DNA of 64,000 bases from Penicillium oxalicum (taxonomy: Eukaryota > Ascomycota > Eurotiomycetes > Eurotiales > Aspergillaceae), in assembly GCF_001723175.1 (NCBI RefSeq), contig NC_064654.1, forward strand, positions 248,001 to 312,000, written 5' to 3'. The notes under the pieces are model-generated. The model saw only the letters and a list, made by a program, of their open reading frames with translations. It was not told the origin of the DNA and searched no databases. Positions 20,117 through 54,703 of this stretch are shown here, piece after piece; position 1 is the stretch's first letter; each line of letters starts with the position of its first letter. Position numbers and translations under genes: made by a program.

Positions 20117-21408
20117 TCAGAACTCGTTGTGGACGGGGATGGGCTTTTCGCCCAATGCACACAGTCGGAAGATGTGTCGGGGTTGTGCGCCGTATTCGTC
20201 GTCGAGGTAGTCGACGATGGCGGAGTCTGAATAATATAAAGAGAAAATTGTCAGAACAAATATAATCAAGCAGGGAGAAACAAGAGAGGAAAGGAAGGGG
20301 ATAACGAGATGGAAAAAGGCCAGGAAATACGAAAGAGGAAGCACTCACGAGTCGTGGACCGATTATCAAACATGACAATTGTCCGTGGTTGCCAGCGCAC
20401 TCGGGCCTGGAAATCATGACCCGAAACTACATGATTCATCAAAAAGTCCAGCAACCACTTGACCTCGGGATCCTTCATGCCCTGAATCTTGGTGATAAAT
20501 TCGGCATTCACAAACAAACACTTCTCCCCCGTCACGGGGTGCACCCTCACCAACGGATGCAGCGTGTCCACGGGGTCCTTGCGCACCAATCCACCCGTCA
20601 GGCGCGTGTGCGCAATCATCTTGGCTGAGGAATGCACACATCGCAGGGTATCCAGGAAGGCGCGCAGAGTCGGCGATAGGCGCTTGTATGCCATGTCGGT
20701 GGCCGCGAAGACGGTGTCGCCGCCCACCTCGGGCCCTTGCAGCAGACCTAGCATGACGTACCCCGGTGGCTGGATCTCGTAGCTCACGTCCTGATGCCAG
20801 AGGGTCGTCGTGGTGCGCTGTTCGAGAAAGCGGGCGATTTCTTCGTGATTGCCATTGCGGTGGATGACGTGAAAGCCTGGGTGATTGCGCACGGTACCCG
20901 AGACGGGCTGGTAGTTGGGTTTTCCAAAATAGCGCATGAAGGACTCCTGGGCGGCCGGGCCGTCGTCAATGAGATCTTGATCGGGAAAGGCAAGGACCTT
21001 GCGCTGGGAGATGAGCAGGGCCAGTTCATCCTTGGCGGCATCCGAGAGGCGATTGAGTTGAACGCCTCGGACCACGGAGCCGATGTTCGGTTGGATGTGG
21101 TCGACGGTGACGTTGGGTGTGAGCAGATTGCGCATGGAGGGGTCTTTGACACGCAGAGCTGGATCGGAGTATTCAAAGGGGGGAAGAGGATCGAACCAGA
21201 CGGGATCCCAGCTAGGCAGATATTGAGGATAGGGTGTGCTGATTTGCGAGAGTTTGTCAACGTCGACGTAGGGGATGTTGATGTCGTAGCTGATGGGAAT
21301 TTCCGGCTGGTGAACATTGTGTGCAGTGTGTCCATTATGCCCGCTATGCCCATTGTGGTCATTATGACCGTTCAATTTGGACCGAATGAGGGGGGCTGAT
21401 GAAGGCAT
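20117..21408 (-). CDS. TauD-family Fe(II)/2-oxoglutarate dioxygenase (taurine/sulfonate type)
   Basis: Likely oxidises a sulfonate such as taurine, using O2 and 2-oxoglutarate and releasing sulfite for sulfur assimilation, as yeast Jlp1 and bacterial TauD do; the exact substrate is inferred. Two exons on the minus strand: 21408-20349 and 20226-20117, giving 389 residues. Seen: the iron ligands His205-x-Asp207 in LWHQDVSYE. The distal ligand His354 has its codon split by the 122-nt intron (C|AC). The 2-oxoglutarate-binding Arg is probably Arg370 (AQPRHIF). QPNIGSVVRGVQL and RKVLAFPDQDL are family blocks. Odd: residues 15-33 carry seven His at exact three-residue spacing, absent from the catalytic core. 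No signal peptide, so probably cytosolic. It is isolated, with 8.5 kb of apparently empty DNA upstream. Confidence 0.9.
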
Positions 21409-24165
21409 TGTAGAGGGTGAGAGGTTATGCAAGTGTGAGTGTGGGAGATTGTGGAAAAGATGACTCTTTGCAGCAGAAGAGAAAAGGCCGCAATGGCAGG
21501 AAGATTCAAGATGCGTAATGGAAAGGATCCGGACACCGTGGGAGCGATGCACGAATGAACTGGGTATTCAAATCCGACGGGAGATAGCAATCCGTCTGGT
21601 GCTGTGTAAAAGAGATTGGAAATCAAATCCCAGGAGTGAAAGGTGGCGATGGGGGAGAAGAGGTCTAAAGAGACACAGATATATAGACACACACGGGCTG
21701 GACCAACGTGTGATGTGTATAGAGTCGGCAATTGAGAGTATCAGTTGTGGGTTTAATTTAGTGGCCGGGAAGGAAAAAGAAATTATAATCAGATCGACTT
21801 CCGAGAAAACCTTCATCACCCCCTTTTATACAACTTCGCATAGACCGATTCGCCGGGCAAGGACAGGGCAGTTGACCGTGCAGGCTATCGGTGGTTTCAT
21901 CAACCCATGTCCGTCAGTGATATCGACCTCGACACCGTCGAACCAGTCCGCGATCCAATGGTCCACGAGCTGTCGAGACCCGAATTCCCTCCGGAACCAC
22001 ACCAAAAGCGCGTCAAGAATCACAAATCGAGGAAGAGACGAAAGAAGAAAGGGAAAAAAAATCAAAAGAAAAATCAAAGTGGGCTCACACATGCGGAGTG
22101 TGGGCATCGTCATGTCTTGTATGGGAGGGGGAAATACGGAAAAAAAAAGATCAAATAGGAAAGACTCCAGAAAAGCAGCAAAGTAAGAAGAACAGAGAAA
22201 AATATTAAAAAAAAATCGTCTACACATTAGATAATAGATAATGAGAAAATACAACAACGAAGGACAAGCGACTTGACTTCCCATGCGGGCCAAATCATGC
22301 ATCGTGGGCCCTCCGCGACCTGCATGATAGCGTCAAACACTAGTTCCCCTTCATCTTGACCGTTGCCAATCGGACTGGAGACCTGGATGATGTATACACG
22401 ATCCGGATAAGGTCTAGGAAAATGGGGAATTCCCGGAAAGTCGACACTAACCCCGGCAGTTGCAGCGAGCTCCCTAGCCTCTGCATCCCTGGAGACGCTG
22501 GGAGGACGGAGAGGTAGATCGACAGATCACCATCAGCGCTGGGAGATTGCACCACACATCGGACATCTCACAAATCATCGAAGGAACAATGGACGTTTCT
22601 TGAATGCGGGAACAGGGGACGGCGTTGTTGCAAGGTTCGGGGTACCCGACCAGAACAGGTACATTGTCGACCCAACCTCCCAGACACCCTGTCAGCGCGG
22701 CACTTACGAATCTCCCGGTCTTCGCTTCGTCAGTTGGAACCGCGCGCCAGGTCACCTTTGAAGCTCATGATTGCTGGAGACCAGGGAGGAGGGTGGACAC
22801 CTTGGGAGGTGCGTTCGGGAAGTTAGGAGCGGGGGGGAGGGGGGAAATCAACGTGGTCTGTGTGCCCAGTGTCCATCCAGTGTGCTGGTCTTCAGACAAG
22901 CGGTCAGCATTGGTGGGTGCAATGAAATCAGGAAAAAGAATCATTGGCAGCAGGCCATGATGGACAAGCCCAGCAGAAAAGGATGATCAGGGGACAATCG
23001 TGGCGATTCCGAGAGGTTCCGACCGTTTGAGATCAGTGGTGAACAAGCCTAAAGGAGGGCGTAAAGGGAGGAAGAGAAGAGCCAAGAGGCATAATCTAAT
23101 AGCCTTTAAGGGTGGAAATTGAGGCGCATGGGAATAACCACTGCTCCATCAAACGAATGAGGCGGCGCGCCCAGGATGAGTGTGAGCTGCTGTAAGAGTC
23201 CAGCGTTCGCTGTCTACTTTGCGGATGGCTCAACGCCAGTCACCAGCCGACCGGATCTACGACTGACCAGCGGACAAGGTAAGTTTACGGGAGAACCTCC
23301 CATCTTCACGACGGTACAAGTCAGGGAAGTGGTGTCGCGATAAAAGGTTCCGATGCGAATGAAGTGGGAACTGAGGAAGTCCAGAAAAAGATAGATCAAC
23401 AGGTGTCCAGTCATCAGCATGCGGCGAATGGGCGAATGGGTGGTTTGGCGAGGGATCATGTCCGGCTTGGGTCATCAACTCCGCCCAAGTGGCCATCGTG
23501 CCCATCCGGGGGGAGGTGGAGAGAGAGTGAGAGTGAGAGACAGAGGAGAGGAAGAGAAAGACAGTCCAAAGCCTGTTATCTTCTCTGTGCTTCTCCCGTC
23601 AGACTTCCGTGCTTAAAAAAGATTAGAAGCTTCTCTGGCTCAAAGATGGACTGGGACCAAAAGAGTAGGTAGGCGAGCCTCGGCCCAAAGGGAGCCCAGC
23701 GTTTACTTCCGGCTTTTGGTGGCTGAGGTATCGTTCCATGCGCACTCTCAATACGACGTCCACTGTAGCGACTCAAGACAGGGACTCGGTGGTGTCGATA
23801 AGAAGGGGCCATCCCAGTGATGGTCACCACCAATCTATCTCCTCGTCAGTCAGATCACCCGTTCAATTGAACACGCCATCTTGGTGGCGTGATACATCTT
23901 CCTTGGGCTGTGATCGCGACAGACTCGATGATTGCACGACGCCGCTCTCCTGCCTTTCTAACATAGCATGATGCATCGATAAGGCAGCTGCAGGTAGAAT
24001 AGTAATTGCATGATTTGCCGTGGATCTATGCAGCAGTGCAGATGCACCGATCATTGGAGACTCGAGAGCCGTTGACACCACTGATCGTTGTGGGAAGGAA
24101 GCCAGGGCTGGAAAGTCAGAAGCCAAAAAAGCAAGTCATTGCGTTGATTTGTCTTTCGGAGGGAA

Positions 24166-41413: not shown

Positions 41414-42284
41414 ATAATTTCTTTTTCTTTCTTCCTTCACTTCTTTTTTTCTTTCTTTTCCGGGCTTTACTTGGAACCGATGGTGGAAAATTTACGATAT
41501 CTCTCTTCCACTGTCGTGTAATCTCTGGGCGTTTAATATCCTTTTGGAATTGTCATGTCCGGGGGGGGACCAGATAGTTTTCGTACGAATTTATGATCGA
41601 GATATGTGAGGTGCTCGAATAGCACCGAAATAGATCCTCGACCGACAACTTCATATTCTCACTAGGGTAAGCAGTACTCGTGTCAATGAGCTAGATCCTG
41701 AACGCGGATGGCACATTGAGATTGCCTTGTAATAGTGAATTGTGCTTCCCCTGCCTCGGAACGAGCTTTGCAGCCATCTGTTTTCCCCCTCCAAAATTTT
41801 TACACAAAATGATGTCTACACATAATTTCCTACAACTATGTTTGAACACCAATTGTCAGAAAATTCATACCGAGTCATTATGCTGCAATATTTTGCCCTG
41901 GTAAAGTTCTGATTCCTAGAAATGACCTATAATCCGAGTACTGTCCAGTGTCCACCCTACCCTGACACGCACAATTTCTTGAGGATAAGCCTTACCCGTA
42001 CACGGGGGGGATTTACCTAGCGAATTCATCCAGAACACGTCCTCTTCGACAAACTTGCAAGATTGGACTTGCACCACAGTGACAGCGCTGCGCGATGGAA
42101 ATCGAACTGTCATGGCACGGACGAGACTATCAAAAACCATCATTCGCAACTGCATTTTAGATTCTGGAATACAACAGCTTTGCACACGCAAATCAAGCAT
42201 ATGGGGCTTGCACGCTGTGGAAGGAATTCTAGAGAATCACCGGCAAAAGAGATGGAGTCCGAAGAGCATAAAAAGAATTTCAAG
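41414..42284. other. Intergenic region left of the first tRNA gene
   Basis: The first 80 bp are T/C-rich, the likely 3' UTR of the rhodopsin-like gene. The remainder is A/T-rich and holds no recognised gene. Confidence 0.5.
42270..42274 (-). terminator. Pol III terminator of tRNA-Ser
   Basis: Five T residues on the minus strand, 10 nt downstream of the tRNA 3' end. Confidence 0.75.
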
Positions 42285-42377
42285 CGACGGCTGTCGGATT
42301 CGAACCGACGCCCCCGAAGGGAATTGATATCGAGGGAAATTCGAGTCAATCGCCTTAGACCACTCGGCCAAACCGCC
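42285..42377 (-). tRNA. tRNA-Ser(CGA) with 11-nt intron
   Basis: Seen: a full cloverleaf read on the minus strand. The acceptor stem is GGCGGTT with AGCCGTC (two G-U pairs) and discriminator G. The D arm is GCC/GGC, the anticodon stem ATTGA/TCAAT with anticodon CGA, and there is a long variable arm CCC-TTCG-GGG typical of serine tRNAs. The T arm is GTCGG-TTCGAAT-CCGAC. The intron is 42329-42339, just 3' of the anticodon-adjacent base, so the mature tRNA is 82 nt before CCA addition. It differs from the other copy in the window at one intron base only. Confidence 0.95.
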
Positions 42378-43677: not shown

Positions 43678-43770
43678 GGCGGTTTGGCCGAGTGGTCTAA
43701 GGCGATTGACTCGAATTTTCCTCGATATCAATTCCCTTCGGGGGCGTCGGTTCGAATCCGACAGCCGTCG
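43678..43770 (+). tRNA. tRNA-Ser(CGA) with 11-nt intron, second copy
   Basis: Same cloverleaf as the copy at 42285-42377, here on the plus strand. The anticodon CGA is at 43712-43714, the intron at 43716-43726 and the variable arm at about 43733-43745. The sequences match at all 82 mature positions. The identity continues about 16 nt past the 3' end (CTTGAAATTC and the T run). Confidence 0.95.
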
Positions 43771-44136
43771 CTTGAAATTCTTTTTAGTCTCTCTAGACTC
43801 TGATCCCACAACATATCCCATCCCAAGCCTTCAGCGTAAAAGGTAAACAAACACGAGTAAATTGCTTACAGATTTAGACCTCCCTGAGAAGCGGAGACAG
43901 GGCCTGCGCCTGAAAAAGTAGTACTACGTTAAAAGGTCAACACTCCACATATTCTTTATTGTTTAATTCTTTCATTCTTCGTCCATTCAAGCTGAAGAGA
44001 AACTTATTTACTCGACCAAGATTCGAGGCGGTCTACTTCGCGACCGCATGTATCCATCAAACGCTCAGATAGACGCACAGTCAACCGGTGACTAGGTAGT
44101 ACGCATTACGCAATACGTACCATGAGTAAATTGCAC
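43771..44136. other. Short intergenic region downstream of the second tRNA
   Basis: 366 bp between the tRNA and the stop of the metallopeptidase gene. It contains the Pol III terminator and presumably the peptidase 3' UTR; nothing else was seen. Confidence 0.55.
43781..43785 (+). terminator. Pol III terminator of tRNA-Ser, second copy
   Basis: TTTTT ten nucleotides after the tRNA 3' end, at the same distance as in the other copy. Confidence 0.75.
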
Positions 44137-46408
44137 CTAAGCAAGTCCCAACTCCTGGTAGAAAGCATCGGTCCGTGGCTCCCGACCCAAAAACTCCGTC
44201 AAAGTAGTCATCTCATCCTGACTACCACCCTTCTCAAGAACAGTGTGACGATACCGACGACCATGCTCCTTGTTCATGGGATCATCCTTGAACACGGTGT
44301 AGAACATATCAGTCGAGTAGACCTGCGAGCTGAGGTAACCATAGTATCCCGCATCGTATCCGCCGATCAGGTGGCCGAAGGTGGCCTCGCCATGGCCCCA
44401 GTCATCGCTGGCGCCGAGGGCTTCGGGGCCGTCCATCTGCGTGATCTCTCGGCGGAGGCGGTTGTAGGTGGCGGATACGGGCAGAGCCTTGACATCCTCG
44501 TGGCTGGCAGGTTCGTGGACGGCCATGTCAAAGATACCAAAGTGCAGCTGGCGCAGGTTGAAGAGGGCATCATTGACATGCTTGGTGGAGATCAGACTCT
44601 TGATGACGTCGTCTGGGATGCGCTCAGACGGAGGGGCCGTCGCGGTCTTACCGCCGCTCTTGGCCTGTTGGGATTCTTGCCAGCCGGCAAGGTACTCGGG
44701 GGACAGGGTAGAATAATGGCGACTGAGGGCGCGCAGCTGGGAAGGCGTCCAGCACCAGTTCTCAAGCATCTGGCTGGGAGCCTCCACAAAGTCCCGTACT
44801 GTGTTGGTGCCGTGGAAGCGGGAGTAGATGGTCTTGGACACGAGATCGTGGATACCGTGACCCAGCTCGTGGAACAGAGTAACCACTTCATCATGTTTGA
44901 GGAGGGAGGGCTTCTTGGGGGTAGGTTTGGTGAAGTTGCAGACCAGTGCAGTCGCGGGGTATCGGCGCTTGCCTTCGGCGTCAATGAAGCCCTAGACAAG
45001 GACAATGTCAATCAGCCAAGCTCCACTGGACGGAGCATTCGCCAAGAAAAAAAATTGAAACATAAAAGAAGAAAGGAAAAGAAAAGAGCGAGTGTCAACT
45101 TACCGGCTGGAGGTTAAAGTTGGCAGCGTGGCCATACTTGCCCTCACGAGGGAACAGATCGAGGTACAGATAGCCAACAAAGCCGCTACCTTCGCCTTCA
45201 TCGTCCCACACGCTAAAGACTTGCACGTCCTCATGCCAAACAATATCATCACCTTTGCCCGTGGGAGCAATGGCAGCACGATCCTCGCCGACTACTTCAA
45301 CAAACGCCAATCCAAACAGCTCCTCGAAGATCTCCAGCATACCTTGAATGGTGGTCTGCAAGGGGAAATACTCTGCGATGAGCTGCTGATCCAGTGAATA
45401 GTCCTTCTCCAGCATCAAGCGATCATAGAAGCGGTGGTCCCACAGGAAGTACCGGCCATCCGCCTTGGGGTCGGTGGACTTCTTCAAGTCCATCAAGGTC
45501 TGGATTTCTCGCTTACCGCCAGCGGTAAGGCGCGAACGCAAGTCGCCCAGGAACTTGTTCACAGTCTCCGGGGTCTTGGCCATCTTGTCTTCGATACGGA
45601 ATGCGGCGTGATTGGGGTAGCCCAGCAAACGGGCAGCCTCGTCACGCAGGATGATAGCCTCACGGAAGAGGGGCACATTCTGGTTGCACTTGTTCTCGTT
45701 TTCGATCATCAATTTCTGACGAGTCTCGGAGTTGGTGGCATACTTCATGGTGGGGAAAAGATCCGGGTACTTGAAGGTCAACCAGAGCTTCCCGGCATTC
45801 TCACCCTCGCCCTTCTTCAGGCCCGACAGAACATCATCAGGCACACCATCCAATTGCTCAGGAGTGAACCAAATGCCACCATTCTCCTCGTTTAGATTCT
45901 TCTGGAACTCAATGCTCAGCGTGCTCAGGCGCTTCTTGATCTCCTTGAAACGATCACGCTTCTCCCCGGCAGGCAGAGACAGTCCGTTGCGGATAAAGTC
46001 CTTGTGCTCCTTTTCGAGGAGTCGACGAGACTCGGGATCCAAAGTCTCATTCTTGTTCAAAACGGCATCCACTAGCTTGTAGACATCCTCCCGCATGACA
46101 GACTCGATGAAGAACTCATCCATCAACTCCTCGGCCTTGGATGAAGCATCACGGAGCTTCTGGTCCGTCGAGACTGCCTGGTAAAAGCCGATGATGTGTG
46201 ACTCCAAGGCCATTTCGTTTTCATTCCGGGATAGGGGGCCCAGGACACTGGCAAAGGTGGCCGCTTCGGGCTTCACCTCGGCCACCACCTTGTCCTGGAC
46301 GGCACGTGAGGTCTTGATGAGACGCTCCGCATCGGCCACGACGGACTGCGGGGTCGCTGTGAAGACGGGGGGAGCTTGAGGCGGCTTCCGTAGAGAAGCG
46401 GGCGCCAT
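44137..46408 (-). CDS. prd1: M3 family metallopeptidase (saccharolysin/thimet oligopeptidase type)
   Basis: Zinc oligopeptidase that cleaves short peptides; the yeast counterpart Prd1 is cytosolic and mitochondrial. Two exons on the minus strand: 46408-45104 and 44991-44137, 719 residues, close to Prd1 (712). Seen: the zinc site HELGH at 476-480 within EVVTLFHELGHGIHDL, and the downstream block FVEAPSQMLENW that supplies the third ligand Glu; RFHGTNTVRDFVEAPSQ is characteristic of the family. The N-terminal half is helical (FKEIKKRLSTLSIEFQKNL). The 112-nt intron has GT-AG ends. Start: the first in-frame ATG gives MAPASLRKPP. Odd: the frame stays open about 110 codons upstream without an ATG and encodes a basic, hydrophobic segment resembling a mitochondrial leader (RYLTTST just before the ATG). 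Confidence 0.93.
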
Positions 46409-48736
46409 GGTGGAAGTCGTCAAGTATCGGTAGTAGACAGGTGTCGGAGTGCGGAAGTGGCCCAGCACAGAAGACAGGCGGGCGGGAAGACGGAGAAGGG
46501 GCGCCACGGTGAGGATGGCGAAGAAGAGGATGAAGAAACGAAGGCGAGCGGTGAACGCTATGCTGGGCGGAGAGAAGGTCCGTGGAGGAGCAGCAGCAGC
46601 AGCAGGAAGAGGGGTTGGAGGTACTGGAGGTACTGCGGTGGAGAAGGATGGTTGGGTCTCACATGGAACGAGTCCCGCGTCCAGTATATCGGACAAAGGC
46701 GTGGGGTATTTCAAGCCTGAGGCAGGAGTGGATCCACACAGTCACTGATCAGTGTTCTTCTCCAACTTCTTCATGCTTTCCCCACCATCACTCAATCACG
46801 TTGACCTCGGTAGGGGAACGTTCTACAGGACAAGGGTGCAGTCAAATTCACGACCCAAAGTCAATACAGTATTACTGAAAGATACATGCTTATTGGTGGC
46901 TTCGCATCCGTGGAAGATTAAGGTAATACATATAGCACCAACAGCGACTGAAGACGTGGACGTAACCAACAGTAATTACTAATGCCCTACGGGAGTTCCT
47001 AAGAGGGGAATATAACCCAAGGGTCGTAAACTAACTTGGTCAAGATGTCATCTTTCCGTTTGCAGGATAGCAACCGAAGAGCCGAATGTAAAAAGATGGC
47101 TCCGTCAGCATCGTATATCCAGCTGTGCGCTAGCAAGCACTTTGCTCCTAAGGTTATTAGTTAGATCAACCTCCTTCCACTCAGCCTGCGCACTTTGGCG
47201 TTCAAATCCATCCAACCGTGACTACCTCATGCGCATCAGGTACCCAAGAGAGCTAGCTTATCGGGGGTTTGCCCTTCTAGCTGATGGACTCAACATGAAT
47301 ATGAGAAGGTCGAGAGAAATCGATGCCGACATTTCTATAAGTGCATCTCGGCACCCCCTCGGGTTGGGCACAGCGCCGTGCGCTACATCTCATGCGTTCG
47401 GTCAATAACACGAAATTTGGAAAATGTAAGCTCGGCATGTGAGGCTCAGTTTTCTTACCAGCAGTGCTGGACGCTTACCACAGTTGCAGGGACATTTGGA
47501 GGAAATAGCCATAAGATACTCCACGAGTATAGCAAATGCACCATTGCCATCGATATCGACGACTGATGATCTGGGTCTCCACCCGTGAATACAGAAAGCC
47601 TAGAGACTATAATAGTAAGGCTTCCCGATGTGATTCATGCTCTTGATATCCGCAGACTAAAAATCGTGCAGCTAAAAAGGTCGGATAGAACCTTACTTGC
47701 CATGGCACCCTGGGGGGAAAATTGGTGTTGCAAAACCAAAAAGAATTACCATGAACCGAGAGAAGAATCTCACTAAAAGAGGATGTCATGCACACATTGA
47801 AAAATCAAAAAAAAGCCCATGGGTAACAGACCTGCAGCCTCACTAGTTACAAGCGAGACATCGAGGAGGATTGACCTATTTAGATTAGGTCTTGGTTCTT
47901 TCGCCCCGGACGTCAGATCGCACTGCGCAAAATATTCGTCTGAAACTGAACCAAGTACAATGTTGCTCATTCCGTTAGAAACTTTGAGGCCTCGGAGATT
48001 ACGCCCTGTTTTCGACTAACAATTTCCCGCTAATATGCATAGATGATCGAGGGCGCCTTCGTTGGCAGTGCCATCAATGATGACTCGAAAAACTTGATTG
48101 CTACAATGTGAACTATTTATGGCGATTTCCTGGTTTCTTTCGCCCGAATCTCGACTTGATAACACCAGTAGATACTAGACCAGGATCCATACATCGGGAA
48201 TGACCTTAGCAGTCGATACATGGCCATGCGGAAATTGAACCGTGACTAGCCGTTTCTCTCCATTTCATGCACGTGGCCAATCATGCAGTACATACCAAAG
48301 CGTGCAGTGTTACATTGCCTGACATCATGCTTGCAAATCCAGAGCGAGTAAGCTTCCGTCGATAATGGAGACGGCCTTGCAAAATAAAAGACTGTGTACT
48401 TCCATTGATATCCTCCTGCAGACCAAAAAGACCATGTCCCGACATGAATGGATACTTGTGTCTTTTAATCAATGTGTTTCGAGTAACGTGTACCGCGCGT
48501 GGTGATTCTCTATCGAGGGGTTTAGGCTGCGCAAAATCTCATAAACAGCATGAGAGGCATCAGCCTCGATAAATCGCACTCATACCTTTATATTGCCGAG
48601 GAAAAATTGACTACATTGCGAGTATTGACATGTTTTTAAAAGTACTGAAATAAATGATTGGCCTGGTAATTGCGGAAAAATAGAACTTCTTCGATAAGAT
48701 TGAGATCGCATCGACGACAGGTATCTCTAGTTAATA
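46409..48736. other. Intergenic region between the metallopeptidase and the NRPS-like gene
   Basis: The left end is the peptidase promoter and 5' leader, including the open frame without ATG discussed in the findings. The rest (47-48.7 kb) is A/T-rich with only short open frames. No gene was recognised. Confidence 0.5.
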
Positions 48737-51700
48737 TCAGACATCATAAAATCCCTTCCGAGTCCAGAACGAAATGATCAGCTTCAAAAGTTCGGGGTCC
48801 AGAGGCTTATACTGAATATCTGGGCGATCTTTGAGAGCCTCCAAGGCGTTGGTTGAGTCATAGATGGGCGTGTTCTGACTCGCCTCCCAGCGGGTCAACT
48901 CTCCCAGAACGCGCTCCTCAAACATGGGCATCAAGGGAGCCAAAGGCCCATCCGGAAGTTGCCCAGCAGTGACCTTGGAGAGCCACTGGGAATACCTGAT
49001 CAATTTGACGGGATAACCAGCATCATTGATCACCTGACAGGTATCGCGGACAGTAATAGACGCCGAAGGATCCGGTGATAAGAGACTATAGGACCGGCCA
49101 AGGTTACGATTCGACGAGGCAATGTGAACCATGGCCGAGATGACATAGTCGATAGTGCAATATTCCAGGTTCTGCTGAAGATCCGGAAAAGCGCCTATCT
49201 GGATACACCCCATGATCAGCCGCGAGAAGAAATCATTTGGATTCAAGGCGCCGGTTTTGCTGTCCCCGATGATGTACCCAGGACGGTGAATGGCGACGGG
49301 AAGGTCCCGGTCTCGCATGCGCCGGACCATTTGCTCGGCTGTCCATTGGCTTGCCGAATATCCCAAATCATATCGAAGGGCTTGCAGATGCGGCAATAAT
49401 GGATCATCTTCAAGGACCCGGAGTGTGCCTAGGATGAACCCCGTGGGCCCCCAAACATCGATGCTGGACATGTAGTGGAAAGATTTTCTCTTGCCCAAAG
49501 CTGCGACTCGTAGCACATTTTTGGTTCCCACAACATTTGAAGGGTAGTGAGAGGCGTAAGTTTCACAGAAGTTCACTTTCGCACCCAGGTGAAAGACGAC
49601 CGAGGCCCAATTCGTGAGCCAGGTGAAACGTTCAGTGCCCAACCCAAGATCGGGTTCTATTATGTCACCTTCCAACACCATGATCTTTTGTATCAGCGTC
49701 AATGAGGTTGGCCAAAGATCATATCGCTCCAGTGTCTGCTGGATGCGATCGGCCCCATTGACCGAACCTTGTCTTCGCGCCAGGCAGGCGACCTGCTTTA
49801 CTTCTGGCATGTCCAGCAGGTAGCGTAGAAGATTCGCGCCAACGAATCCGGTTGCGCCAGTCAAGAACACATGACCTTCGTTGTGAGCTGTCCAGTCTAC
49901 AACTGTCTCAATGTTGTCGACAAGCCCAACGTCTCGAATTCATGTTCGAGTCTCATCAGTTGCATGGGCAGGCGAGACTGTCGAGGTCATGTTATCGACC
50001 AGAGAAACAAGATCTCGTAGTCGGGTGTTTTGCAGGAACTGCTCCATAGAGATATGACAATCCAGATCTCTCCGAATCAGAGAGATCAAGGCCGCGTTTT
50101 GTAAAGAGTTGGCGCCTTGCTCAATAAAGTCGTCATGGTCGGAAACGTGCGACTGCGGAAGGATTTGCTTCCATAACTTTTTAATGACATCCTTCGTGGT
50201 CAGACCTCCGGCTGTGTGGAGGCACTGAGCTGAATGGGTTTGGTGATCTTGGTTGTTCTTCCATTCCGTATAGCGGTCTTGAAGCGCTTGTCGATCTACC
50301 TTGCCGTTGACGGTCAACGGGAGCTCCTTGACTAGCTCAACATAATCCGGGGCCATGTACGATGGCGATCGCTCACGGACAAATGCCAAAATGGACTCCA
50401 CCTTGATGTTTTGCTGACCATTTGTTTTGACAAATGCCACAAGCAAGGATACGCCATTGTTGACGGTCGAAGGAACATGGACCACTGCCGCCGATTCGAC
50501 GCCATCGTGGCAAAGCAAGTGAGCCTCTACCTCGGAAAGCTCAACTCTGAAGCCACCGTGCTTGACCTGTCTATCCCGGCGGCCACAAAAGTCCAAGCAT
50601 TTCAAGTCTGATCTCCACTTTGCATAGTCCCCCGTTCGGTATAAGCGGACAGATCCTTGGATGTTGCCCGGAGACTCTTGAACGTTCAGGACACTGCGAT
50701 CCAGATGTATAAAGCACTCTTCAGTTTTGGCGGGCATATTCAAGTACCCTGCTGAGAGTTGGGGTCCTGCAATGCATATTTCTCCTTCAATGCCACTTTC
50801 CCGAATTGGCTGCAAATTTTGGTCAAAGAGGTAGACATTCAGATCACCCACTGCCCGACCGATGCTGATCCGGTCTTGTTTCAGTTCTTCTTCGCTCACC
50901 AGCATCGCCGTGGCAAGTGTGGTACATTCAGTCGGGCCGTATGTGTTCCACAGATATTTCGGCGGTTTACACATTGCGCGCATTGCCTTGACACTGGCAA
51001 CGTCCCCTGCGCTCATGACATGTCGTAAACTTTGAAAGATAGAAGGCTCTCCGAAAACCAGGATCTCCATCAGAGCTACAGGGAGCATTATCACCGTTAC
51101 CCCTTGATGCTCCAAGAAGCTTTTGAGACGGGGAGGGTCAGTGACGGTGGTCTTTTGAATGGCAACGGCAGTGGCTCCAGAGAGCAGGGTCACCCAGATC
51201 TCAAAGAGACTAAGGTCAAACCCCGGGTTATTGAAATGTGTCACTCTATCATCTGGACTCAATGGGGTGAATGGGGTCTTGTTGGCCAGGTGCATGATGT
51301 TTTGAGCCCTAATCTGGACCGGCTTAGGCCTTCCCGTAGAGCCCGACGTGAAGAGAATGTGAGTGCGATGCTCCGGGCTCAGAATAGCAGGAGATGCTAA
51401 CTCATCGTCAAAGTTACAATGAGCATCAGATGCTGGGGTGCTTTGGAGAGTAATGTAGTCCATGCCCTCCACCCGCTGATCACTTCGTTCGACGCCCTGC
51501 GCGGCGACAATCACGCGTTTGACTCCAATGTCGTGAAACATGCGCGAAATCCTAGTCCTAGGCATTGCAGGATCCACAGGAACGCAGGTTCCTCGAGCAA
51601 ATATCACGGCGAGCTGTGCAACCACCAGATTGACTCCAGGGGGAAGAAGAATGCCAATTGGCTCCTCCCGCCCAATCTTGTTCTGATCGAGTGTTTGAGC

Positions 51701-51811
51701 CAAGCCCTGAGATTGAAGAATCATATCTTTATAAGATAAAACATGGTCATCCTCAATCACAGCAATTGATTCGGGAGCAGACCGCGCTCTTTCAATGACT
51801 TTTTGATCCAT
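48737..51811 (-). pseudogene. NRPS-like adenylation-thiolation-reductase gene split by an in-frame TGA
   Basis: An assembly-line enzyme that would activate a carboxylic acid as adenylate, load it on a carrier and release it reductively. ATG at 51811 (MDQKVIERAR). Seen: A3 FTSGSTGRPKPV (154-165), A5 NTYGPTECT, A7 YRTGDYAKW, A8 GRRDRQVKHGGFRVE, A10 LPLTVNGKVDR with its Lys; carrier Ser569 in EQGANSLQNAAL. Codon 624 is TGA (49942-49940). The same frame then continues, without another ATG, through IETVVDWTAHNEG into the Rossmann motif FLTGATGFVGANLL and a full thioester-reductase-like domain to a stop at 48737 (1024 residues if read through). The reductase has Tyr-Ser-Ala-Ser-Gln where Tyr-x3-Lys is expected. 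I found no frame-keeping GT-AG intron around the TGA. If translation stops there, a 623-residue A-T protein remains, which could still be active. Gene, pseudogene and sequencing error all remain possible. Confidence 0.75.
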
Positions 51812-53116
51812 TTGAAGAGAAGAGACTCTAAGCACTGATGAAAATGATGATCGTGTCAATTGGTGTAAAGATCTCAAGATCAAGTGAAGTCTGCAAGATG
51901 TTGTTTGGTAGAAGGCTGTCTAATGATTTGATTCAACTTGCTCGGTACTACCACCTCAACCTTAGGGACCTTTGGATTTATATCTTCTCCTGAGCCCCGA
52001 AGTATGAGCTCTATTCACTGCTACATACTTGAGAACGTCAGAATCGGAACTAGGTGGCCACAAAGCTCGGAAATGCTTCGCTGTATATTGACCTATGGCG
52101 AAACTATAAACTGGATAAATTGTCCACAAATGCTACATCGAATTGTGGATCGCCACGTAAAACAGCCAAGCCTGCAGGTGACAGCCCTGTGCCCACCCCT
52201 TCCCCCCAAACTTGCTTTGAAGATGTTGAGGATATCAGGCCCAGTTTGCACGATATGCTTCTTGCTGGTTATGTGCCTCTATTTCCTCATTTTGCGTGCT
52301 CGATGAACCTTGATTGATTCTCCAAGACGTCGGCTCACTTTCCGTTCACTCAAATGATTTCCTCTAACTTTTGGCGGAGCCCTGACCCGTTGAAAATCTT
52401 GATGAAGATATTTGACACTTATTATTCGACAGAACCAATCTCACGTACTTCTCCAATCTTACTGTCTATCTACACTGCTTTACTGTGTGATATGATGAAA
52501 TTGATGTTCAACTTGTATCGCCGTGTGTTGGTGATCTCTCAGCCGGAATCTTCTTAAGACGGATGTGGAATCTACACCAAACCTTTGCAATACCACTTGG
52601 ATTCACTCCCTTCGGCTCCTACCATGTCAGATGATCTTCGCCCTGCTATGGCGTAGAGGTAAAAGTCTATGTTGTCTAACCCATGGCCCATCCGCCGATT
52701 CTGCTATCAGGTAGTCATGCATAAAAGGCTGCCCACGGTGGATAGCGGTCATGGCACTCAGTATGGCACACGTATATTGGACTGGAGGGTATTTCCGAGG
52801 CCACACATCCCCAAATTGACGTCGTGTTACTTGTGAAGAACCTGTTTTAGCCCAGTGATACGATCAAGGCCGATCGCACGAGCCTCTTTGAAAAACGTCA
52901 GTATCCACGACTGTATCGGCCAAAACCATATGATACTTCTCTGAAAGACCTAATGATATCATGCTGTGCGGATCAAAGCGCTAGCGGAGACAGATCTTCA
53001 CAAGATCATCGTCCAGAACTACATCATATATAAGGTTCTTTCCCATGGCTATATCTCAAAGATTGTTTGAGTAAAATATAGGTGATATCATTCTGATAGT
53101 TTTATTTGTCACTGCC
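51812..53116. promoter_or_regulatory. Shared divergent promoter of the NRPS-like and oxoamine-synthase genes
   Basis: 1.3 kb between the two start codons with no supportable gene. TATAAAT on the minus strand (51976-51982) lies about 165 nt upstream of the NRPS-like ATG; TATATAAGG (53027-53035) lies about 80 nt upstream of the other ATG. The head-to-head arrangement suggests co-regulation. Confidence 0.55.
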
Positions 53117-54703
53117 ATGCTTTTCACACGCTCTCAAACCATTCGATCCAGGACTCAGTTGTTTCTGGGTCGACACAACCAAATTTTTTTCCCGCGACAA
53201 ATCTTCCAAAGACCAGCTACGCTCCGTTACTTCGCTGAGTGTAGATCGGTATACTCTGGAGATCCATTGACCAGAAAACTTGACAAAATTCTGGAAATCC
53301 GCCGCCAGAAAGGAAGATTTATTGAGCCAGTCAATCCACGAGAAAGTGCAAAAATGGTGGATTTTGGCTCAAATGATACTCTTTCTCTCAACTCTTCAGG
53401 CCTTTTGCGCAAAGCTTTTCTCGATGAAGTTGTCAAGAATCCTGACTTTGAAGTGGGCAGTCGATCCACGCGGATCTTCGAAGGCACAACTCAGTACTTA
53501 CTAGACCTGGAAGAATACTTGGCCGGACTTCATCGAGCAGAATCTGCATTATTTTTCCCGTCTGGGTACGAGGCCAATGTTGCTATCTGGTCGACTATTC
53601 CTCAACCGGGTGACTTTGTGGTGTATGACGAATACGTTCACGCGAGCATCCATGATGGAATGCGTCAGGGTAGAGCGTCGAAGCGAATGTTCTCTCATAA
53701 TGACTGTGAATGTCTGCGAGAGTGCCTCCTGGATATATGCAAGTCCAATCCGGCGGTGGCAGAAGGACAACATACAGTTTTCATAGCCCTCGAATCCATC
53801 TACAGCATGGATGCTGACATCGTTCCAATCCACGAGATGCTCAATCTGACAAAGGAAATTCTCCCTCGTGGTAATGTGATATTCTCAATCGATGAGGCAC
53901 ATTCCAATGGGTTGATCGGAGAGAATGGATCAGGATTGGTTTGTCACTATGGACTCGAGAGCGAGATTTCTATCCGACTACACACGTGTGGTAAAGGCCT
54001 CGGGTCAACTGGAGGTACGTCTCATCTACAGAGCTCTCGGGACAATTTGAAACGATATAGGCTATAACTCATGAACAGCTGCCGTGTTGACCAATGAAAC
54101 CATGCGGTCATATCTGATCAATTATGCGAGAGGCCTGATCTTCTCTACCGCTCCGGCTTTCCCGTGTCTAGCAGCTGTCAAAGGGGGGTATAACATCGTG
54201 GCAAGCAAGGAGGGCGACGAGGTTGGTTCTCAAATGAGCATGGTCCCTTGAGACAAAAAGTTTCTCACTGAAACAATTAACAGCGTCGCCTGCGCCTGCA
54301 AAACAACCTCAGCAATTTCTATGAAAAGCTCACTCGGCATCCTACCTGGGCAAAATGTGCTTTCAGCGGCATACTCAGTCTCCCAACTGAAAAAGTGTGG
54401 CGCACAGGAGACTTTCTGACTCCAATTATTCCACTCGTCACGGAGCCTGGCCAGGCATCGAGCCTTGCGCGAAAAATGCAGAGTGCAGGGTATCAGGTGA
54501 ACCCAGTGTTTTACCCCATCGTGCCCCGAGACAAGGAACGGGTTCGACTAGTAATGCATGCAGATAATACATCTGCTCAGATTGACGAGGTAGTCCACCT
54601 GATTATGACCTGGGCGACCTCACGGCTTGCGAACCAGTTGCAAAGGTCAGACCGCCTTGTGCCTGAAGGAGACATGTACCAGAACGTGGCATTTTCGGAT
54701 TGA
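53117..54703 (+). CDS. PLP-dependent alpha-oxoamine synthase (BioF/ALAS/KBL family)
   Basis: Enzymes of this family condense an amino acid with an acyl thioester, losing CO2 to give an alpha-aminoketone. Three exons: 53117-54014, 54079-54221 and 54284-54703, giving 486 residues. Seen: PLP-binding LHTCGKGLGSTG with the Schiff-base Lys293; FSIDEAHSNGLIGENGSG with Asp259 and His262; VGSRSTRIFEGTTQYLLDLE, SALFFPSGYEANVA and FGSNDTLSLNSSG. The catalytic residues are all present. The N-terminus (MLFTRSQTIRSRTQLFLGRH, rich in Arg, no acids) resembles a mitochondrial presequence. Housekeeping ALAS and BioF differ in length and context; this one sits head to head with an A-T-reductase gene, so secondary metabolism is the better inference. 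The exact substrates are unknown. The second intron has donor GTTGGT, weaker than usual. Confidence 0.88.

What the first reader, a model, noticed from the sequence alone, without database searches (positions are those of the whole stretch)
48737..54703. Candidate undescribed two-gene module: A-T-(R) enzyme head to head with an alpha-oxoamine synthase
An oxoamine synthase can condense an amino acid with an acyl thioester. A carrier-bound acyl group from the neighbouring A-T domains would be a natural partner, giving an alpha-aminoketone and releasing the carrier without a reductase. This would explain why the reductase could lose its Lys and then be cut off by a stop. The two genes share a 1.3-kb divergent promoter with plausible TATA boxes, and both neighbours (oligopeptidase and desaturase) are housekeeping genes, as for a small inserted cluster. 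I do not recall a described fungal cluster with exactly this pair, but I cannot search.
Basis: inference. Interest (0 to 1): 0.75.

Follow-up and report, generated by a model that had tools for sequence, protein, structure and literature searches.

The report
Conserved fungal amino-acid coupling gene pair
A Penicillium genome carries two neighbouring genes, one for an enzyme predicted to load an amino acid and one for an enzyme predicted to make an aminoketone, whose relatives share a contig in about three dozen other fungal records and which would likely build a still unknown small ring compound together.

Summary
The pair is real and its linkage is conserved. The AOS (53117-54703, two introns, 486 aa) is intact and not a housekeeping copy: BioF, ALAS, LCB1 and LCB2 lie elsewhere in this genome. 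Of the 120 best A-T-R relatives, 38 (window included) share a contig with one of the 120 best AOS relatives; six have locus tags 1-2 apart. Their trees mirror each other beyond genus (r=0.895, 0 of 5000 shuffles). The same genome holds a second head-to-head pair: an intact A-T-R and an ALAS-type AOS. Lys-to-Gln in the reductase is family-wide (107 Gln, 8 Lys of 115 readable), whether or not an AOS is shown nearby. The reductase is better conserved than A-T and not accelerated past the stop; the stop looks late and local. Likely mechanism (inferred): the AOS makes an alpha-aminoketone, and the A-T enzyme acylates it with a tethered amino acid to a pyrazinone-type ring, without reduction. Direct Claisen off-loading and a reductive pyrazine route remain open. 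No listing or passage seen in the searched library describes this pair.

The parts
49943..51811 (-). A-T part of the A-T-R enzyme (623 aa): adenylation domain, its C-terminal part, carrier domain with its Ser
   Evidence: Pfam AMP-binding, AMP-binding_C, PP-binding; code DLFMMATTLK with D235, K517 and carrier Ser present (positions set by motif, numbering recalled from GrsA)
49940..49942 (-). single in-frame TGA between the carrier and reductase domains
   Evidence: the relatives aligned are open here
48740..49939 (-). thioester-reductase (R) domain, open frame of 400 codons after the TGA; NADPH motif TGATGFVG, Ser and Tyr kept, Lys replaced by Gln
   Evidence: NAD_binding_4 1.2e-57, TIGR01746 256.7 bits, above its cut-off 213.35, model pLDDT 93.1 matching the 4w4t/4u7w R domain at TM 0.82, motif
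51812..53116 (.). divergent spacer, 1305 bp, between the two start codons
   Evidence: the paralogous pair has 1334 bp, and the two spacers share no more 10- to 14-mers than shuffled sequence
53117..54703 (+). alpha-oxoamine synthase gene, exons 53117-54014, 54079-54221, 54284-54703, 486 aa, first 45 aa Arg-rich
   Evidence: (splicing by eye, open frame), Pfam PF00155 on exon 1, 100% to P0001, nearest solved 9dos and 9pep SphA, PLP Lys/His/Asp/Arg present
45095..46714 (-). neighbouring M3 peptidase (oligopeptidase), not part of the module
   Evidence: Pfam PF01432
55896..56825 (-). neighbouring desaturase with cytochrome b5 domain, not part of the module
   Evidence: Pfam PF00173, PF00487

Best explanation
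The two genes are a conserved neighbouring pair of a PLP-dependent alpha-oxoamine synthase and an A-T-R enzyme, predicted to work together: the synthase would make an alpha-aminoketone from an amino acid and an acyl-CoA, and the A-T enzyme would likely tether a second amino acid and pass it to that amine, so that the product would close to a pyrazinone-type ring without reduction. Shown here: the domains, the intact synthase, the linkage and tree congruence, the Gln in the reductase, and the second pair with a different synthase class. Inferred: amino-acid activation (from the A-domain code), the acyl-CoA donor, the acyl transfer, the ring closure, and that the R domain now serves as a non-reducing partner (gate or condensation site) rather than a reductase. 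In this particular genome the A-T-R gene of the pair carries a stop before the R domain; the paralogous A-T-R on C6 is intact, and so are relatives in other species.
For: 38 of 120 A-T-R hits share a contig with an AOS hit, falling from 9, 9, 12 and 6 per 20 in ranks 1-80 to 2 and 0 in ranks 81-120; consecutive locus tags in P. desertorum, F. verticillioides, F. gaditjirri, F. torreyae and F. sarcochroum. Mirror-tree r=0.895 for 35 pairs; within-genus shuffles mean 0.658, max 0.786, 0 of 5000. Second head-to-head pair in the same genome, with A code DLFILATTLK (8 of 10 positions as in the window) but an ALAS-type partner (TIGR01821 593.9 bits, cut-off 338.55; 60% to own ALAS): the loaded amino acid looks constant while the synthase class varies, as expected if the synthase brings its own acyl-CoA. 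D235 in 37 of 37 readable, K517 and carrier Ser in 38 of 38 linked. R Lys is Gln in 37 of 37 readable linked members, yet R is the better conserved part (81.7-87.2% against 57.8-68.7% for A-T, eight close relatives). AsaC is proposed to acylate an amino-aldehyde amine with tethered leucine, with no C domain (PMC10512218, passages).
Against: No product, expression or enzyme data. Gln is about as common in relatives with no AOS shown on their contig (70 Gln, 8 Lys, 4 unreadable of 82), so it is not tied to the AOS, and those relatives presumably still release something. The three glycines of the NADPH motif stand in 116 of the 117 relatives that reach it and the Tyr in 115 of 115, which a dead reductase would not need. 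The acyl donor of the window's AOS is unknown; its nearest solved relative with a known pathway, SphA, takes a polyketide-derived acyl group (PMC10936153, passages), which fits carrier off-loading better than a free acyl-CoA. Outside this genome only shared contigs and a few locus tags were seen, not orientation or spacing; 27 of the 38 contigs are longer than 100 kb, where a shared contig alone says little. The ALAS-type pairing was seen in one genome only.
Confidence: 0.38

Rival explanations
1. Direct off-loading: the AOS condenses a second amino acid with the carrier-bound aminoacyl thioester by decarboxylative Claisen reaction and releases a diaminoketone; the R domain is silent.
For: The nearest solved relatives include SphA, which picks up a polyketide from a PKS without a recognised thioesterase (PMC10936153 passages). 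Gln for Lys in 37 of 37 readable linked members. Tight tree congruence.
Against: Gln is not specific to linked members. None of the other 37 linked relatives has lost R (945-1048 aa, motif readable). The pair-2 synthase is ALAS-type by score beside a hydrophobic-looking A code.
Confidence: 0.27
2. Two-product coupling: the R domain still reduces the tethered amino acid to an amino aldehyde, which condenses with the AOS-made aminoketone to an unsymmetrical pyrazine.
For: R domain highly conserved, NADPH motif, Ser and Tyr kept, predicted thioester-reductase fold. Known fungal A-T-R enzymes of the amino-acid clade are proposed to make aldehydes on the way to piperazine-type cores (PMC9605436 passages). 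Gln-type relatives with no AOS shown are common, so Gln may be tolerated.
Against: The catalytic Lys of the SDR triad is Gln in 37 of 37 readable linked members; of the 13 R domains readable in this genome, the 10 outside this family all keep Lys.
Confidence: 0.2
3. Linkage without joint chemistry: the two genes are co-inherited parts of larger, variable clusters and act in separate steps or on a third partner's product.
For: The gene surroundings in other species could not be viewed; beside pair 2 there is at least one gene of unknown function (DUF7582).
Against: Here the pair sits between an M3 peptidase and a desaturase with no other biosynthetic gene recognised between them; a second such pair in the same genome uses another synthase class.
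Confidence: 0.12
4. In this genome the A-T-R gene is a pseudogene and the locus is decaying (does not exclude the mechanisms above for intact pairs).
For: One in-frame stop cuts off R.
Against: No further stop in the 400 codons of R; the R branch is not longer relative to A-T than in relatives (0.093/0.265 = 0.35, against 0.27-0.54 in eight relatives); AOS intact. The 623-aa protein stands for 5 member sequences on 2 contigs, though these could be records of one assembly.
Confidence: 0.3

Closest known systems
Fungal A-T-R carboxylate reductases of the amino-acid clade (LnaA, LnbA, HqlA, BrsA, AsaC)
   Same: A-T-R layout, amino-acid substrates, no C domain (PMC9605436 passages; PMC10512218 passages and section 17)
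   Different: No AOS partner is mentioned in the passages read; whether their R domains carry Lys or Gln could not be checked here
SphA (sphingofungin) and Fum8 (fumonisin) oxoamine synthases
   Same: SphA is among the closest solved relatives of the window's AOS; it joins aminomalonate to a polyketide (PMC10936153 passages). Fum8 is named an oxoamine synthase in PMC5561558 (passage); its sequence was not compared
   Different: Their partner is a polyketide synthase; here it is an A-T-R enzyme
FsqF of the fumisoquin cluster
   Same: NRPS-like enzyme without C domain in a pathway that makes a carbon-carbon bond between two amino-acid units (PMC6943532 and PMC11051388 passages)
   Different: Proposed chemistry is dehydroalanine attack on a presumed tyrosine phosphate ester; I recall a PLP-type domain inside FsqF but could not confirm it (Baccile 2016 not held)
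Housekeeping BioF and 5-aminolevulinate synthase
   Same: Same PLP family
   Different: Own BioF (beside a BioDA-type gene) and own ALAS are other loci; the window AOS is below both curated cut-offs

Membership tests
Alpha-oxoamine synthase family | Fold-type I PLP enzyme with PLP Lys, stacking His, Asp and carboxylate Arg (roles recalled) | tested here: met
   Residues present in the window protein; among the 33 linked AOS of 380-560 aa (of 39 linked, window included) Lys in 32, His, Asp and Arg in 33; solved AOS enzymes are the best PDB hits
BioF (KAPA synthase) housekeeping orthologue | Curated BioF score | tested here: not met
   TIGR00858 232.8 bits against cut-off 426.45; caution: exon 1 of the own BioF alone scores only 202.7, so this bacterial cut-off does not decide by itself
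BioF (KAPA synthase) housekeeping orthologue | Location in the biotin cluster | tested here: not met
   The BioF copy beside a BioDA-type gene is at G000:C6:960488 and branches apart from the linked AOS in the tree
5-aminolevulinate synthase orthologue | Curated ALAS score | tested here: not met
   TIGR01821 148.8 against 338.55 for the window AOS; the pair-2 AOS meets it with 593.9
Fungal A-T-R reductase (CAR) | A, T and R domains in one protein | tested here: not met
   All three domains are encoded in one frame but a TGA separates R; met in the pair-2 paralogue P0188, 1045 aa
Fungal A-T-R reductase (CAR) | SDR catalytic Ser/Thr-Tyr-Lys | tested here: not met
   Ser and Tyr present, Lys is Gln
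Fungal A-T-R reductase (CAR) | NADPH-dependent aldehyde release | not testable with these tools
   needs an assay
PKS off-loading AOS (SphA type) | Closest sequence relatives are such synthases | tested here: inconclusive
   9pep SphA 3.4e-93, second only to 9dos 1.1e-95, whose molecule name is 8-amino-7-oxononanoate synthase
PKS off-loading AOS (SphA type) | Adjacent polyketide synthase | tested here: not met
   Neighbours are A-T-R, M3 peptidase and desaturase

The most novel reading that the evidence does not exclude
A widespread, undescribed fungal assembly logic without condensation or reductive release: an A-T enzyme whose reductase domain has become a non-reducing coupling or gating domain hands a tethered amino acid to an alpha-aminoketone made by a dedicated oxoamine synthase, with BioF-type and ALAS-type synthases recruited independently, giving a new class of pyrazinone- or diaminoketone-derived metabolites.
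Probability: 0.3. Interest if true: 0.82.

Novelty: new variant of a known kind. Interest (0 to 1): 0.6.

Why it matters
Two well-known enzyme families are shown to be linked and to share their tree in Penicillium, Aspergillus, Xylogone and Fusarium, with a paralogous pair using another synthase class in the same genome. If they work together, this is a compact two-enzyme way to join two amino acids through a ketone, and it would give a role to a large group of A-T-R enzymes whose reductase lacks the catalytic Lys. It makes a direct question testable: are the Gln-type fungal R domains reductases at all?

Tried and rejected
Housekeeping AOS: rejected (own BioF, ALAS, LCB1 and LCB2 found elsewhere). 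Lys loss as a recent decay step of this gene: rejected (family-wide). R domain decaying since the stop: not supported. Intron removing the stop: considered by eye only; relatives encode conserved residues through the linker and I noticed no consensus donor, so not favoured but not excluded without transcripts. Stop-codon read-through: not tested. Shared motifs between the two spacers: none above shuffled sequence. A fused A-T-R-AOS protein as a Rosetta-stone test: could not be made. Whether the ALAS-type pairing is conserved elsewhere: query could not be made. Co-expression, product and orientation in other genomes: no data in these tools. An A-code signature of linkage: only a tendency (TTLK ending in 28 of 38 linked and 31 of 82 others).

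Literature: the ten searches (PMC CC-licensed library only) gave no listing, and the papers opened gave no passage, that describes an A-T-R enzyme with an AOS; most subscription papers are not in that library, so this does not show that nothing is in print. Papers were seen as found passages only: PMC5999785, PMC6222107, PMC11051388, PMC9605436, PMC5561558, PMC6943532, PMC10936153, PMC10967133, PMC8211754; PMC10512218 passages plus section 17. Baccile 2016 and Kalb 2014 were not held.
Full report
What is there. The window lies in a 30.8-Mb genome that matches Penicillium oxalicum: its AOS is identical over 407 residues to POX_e06235, and its contig C6 has the length of the contig that carries POX_f08525. 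The A-T-R gene and the AOS gene diverge from a 1305-bp spacer and have an M3 peptidase and a desaturase as neighbours. The AOS is intact after removal of two introns. The A-T-R gene encodes all three domains in one frame, but a single TGA stands in the linker before R. The relatives aligned are open there, so intact copies exist.

Is the linkage conserved? Only the 120 best of 7919 A-T hits and the 120 best of 550 AOS hits were listed. Among these, 38 A-T-R proteins have the same longest-contig length as an AOS protein, the window's own pair included. In the 32 cases where both sides carry an organism name the organism agrees; five are unnamed metagenome records. Eleven of the 38 lie on contigs of at most 100 kb. 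Locus tags are consecutive in Penicillium desertorum, Fusarium verticillioides, F. gaditjirri, F. torreyae and F. sarcochroum, and two apart in Aspergillus arachidicola. Linkage falls with rank: 9, 9, 12, 6, 2 and 0 of 20, which serves as an internal control. It is probably a lower bound: P. atrosanguineum, A. udagawae, A. pseudonomiae and A. niger stand in both lists on different contigs. Distances among 35 one-to-one pairs agree with r=0.895; three of the 38 were dropped (two contigs with two AOS, one A-T-R that shares its contig and AOS with another). Shuffles within genus give mean 0.658, maximum 0.786 and 0 of 5000 as high; the 15 pairs classed as Aspergillus give r=0.904, 0 of 5000.

A second pair in the same genome. 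The A-T-R paralogue P0188 (1045 aa, intact; A-T part at G000:C6:3760254-3762122) stands head to head, 1334 bp away, with another AOS (match from C6:3763616). That AOS is ALAS-type: 593.9 bits to TIGR01821 (cut-off 338.55) and 60% identical to the own ALAS. As an uninterrupted frame it starts without the N-terminal stretch seen before the own ALAS, and it has Ala where the own ALAS and the four printed solved ALAS chains have Thr. I recall that this Thr restricts ALAS to glycine; this comes from no call. Among 33 linked AOS of the BioF-like group the same column is Ser in 17, Thr in 11, Ala in 4. The third family member (C1:5003720) has no AOS within the fetched 10 kb. The two A codes agree at 8 of 10 positions (DLFMMATTLK, DLFILATTLK), while the two synthases fall in different parts of the tree.

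The reductase. The Lys of YxxxK is Gln in 107 of 120 relatives, Lys in 8 and unreadable in 5. Among linked ones it is 37 Gln, 0 Lys, 1 unreadable (the window's own A-T piece, whose R piece reads Gln); among the others 70 Gln, 8 Lys, 4 unreadable. In the own genome 16 R-type hits were found and the motif was read in 13: Gln in exactly the three members of this family, Lys in 10. So Gln marks this A-T-R family and does not track the AOS link. R is the more conserved half: 81.7-87.2% against 57.8-68.7% for A-T to eight close relatives. The window's R branch (0.093 against 0.265 for A-T) is no longer, relative to A-T, than in those relatives. The stop is thus recent, or R is still made. The R model (pLDDT 93.1) matches solved thioester reductases (4w4t, TM 0.82).

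How it most likely works. The A domain keeps the residues recalled as marks of alpha-amino-acid activation (D235, K517) and the carrier keeps its Ser. The AOS keeps its PLP and carboxylate residues and is closest to 9dos and SphA among solved proteins. A synthase class that varies beside a nearly constant A code suggests that the synthase brings its own acyl-CoA and makes an alpha-aminoketone. An aminoketone amine attacking the tethered amino acid would give an aminoacyl-aminoketone, which can close to a pyrazinone without reduction. That would parallel the amide step proposed for AsaC, where an amino aldehyde attacks tethered leucine without a C domain (PMC10512218 passages), and would account for a conserved R domain that lacks the catalytic Lys. 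All of this chemistry is inferred.

Known or new. Fungal A-T-R enzymes and PKS-linked AOS enzymes are known. The pairing of the two was not met in the listings and passages seen from the CC-licensed library, which misses most subscription papers. I rate it a new variant of a known kind.

LCB1 and LCB2 were named by eye at first and are now supported; the claim that most unlinked A codes end otherwise was wrong and is replaced by the counts; the number of named shared contigs is 32, not 33.

Noticed in passing
window 42284-42377 (-) and 43678-43771 (+): Two tRNA genes of equal score (47.3 bits) in inverted orientation 1.3 kb apart; ARAGORN could not settle the anticodon.
   Followed up: no
L023:6949-8340 (G000:C6:3763448-3764839): An ALAS paralogue, one uninterrupted frame without presequence, beside an A-T-R gene about 5.5 kb from a contig end, with Ala at a Thr seen in the own ALAS and the four printed solved ones.
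   Followed up: partly
window 53117-53251: The AOS model has an Arg-rich, acid-poor N-terminal stretch of about 45 aa like a mitochondrial presequence; the deposited P0001 model starts at an internal Met and lacks it, and a few relatives (P0004, P0007, P0061) have similar stretches.
   Followed up: partly
L025:4176-7307 (G000:C1): Third A-T-R of the same Gln-type family in this genome with no AOS within the fetched 10 kb.
   Followed up: partly
P0121-P0240: A-domain codes end in TTLK in 28 of 38 linked members and 31 of 82 others; codes ending in FK or YK are 3 of 38 and 38 of 82.
   Followed up: partly
window 20266-21552 (-): TauD/TfdA-type dioxygenase between genes for a nucleoporin and the peptidase.
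   Followed up: no
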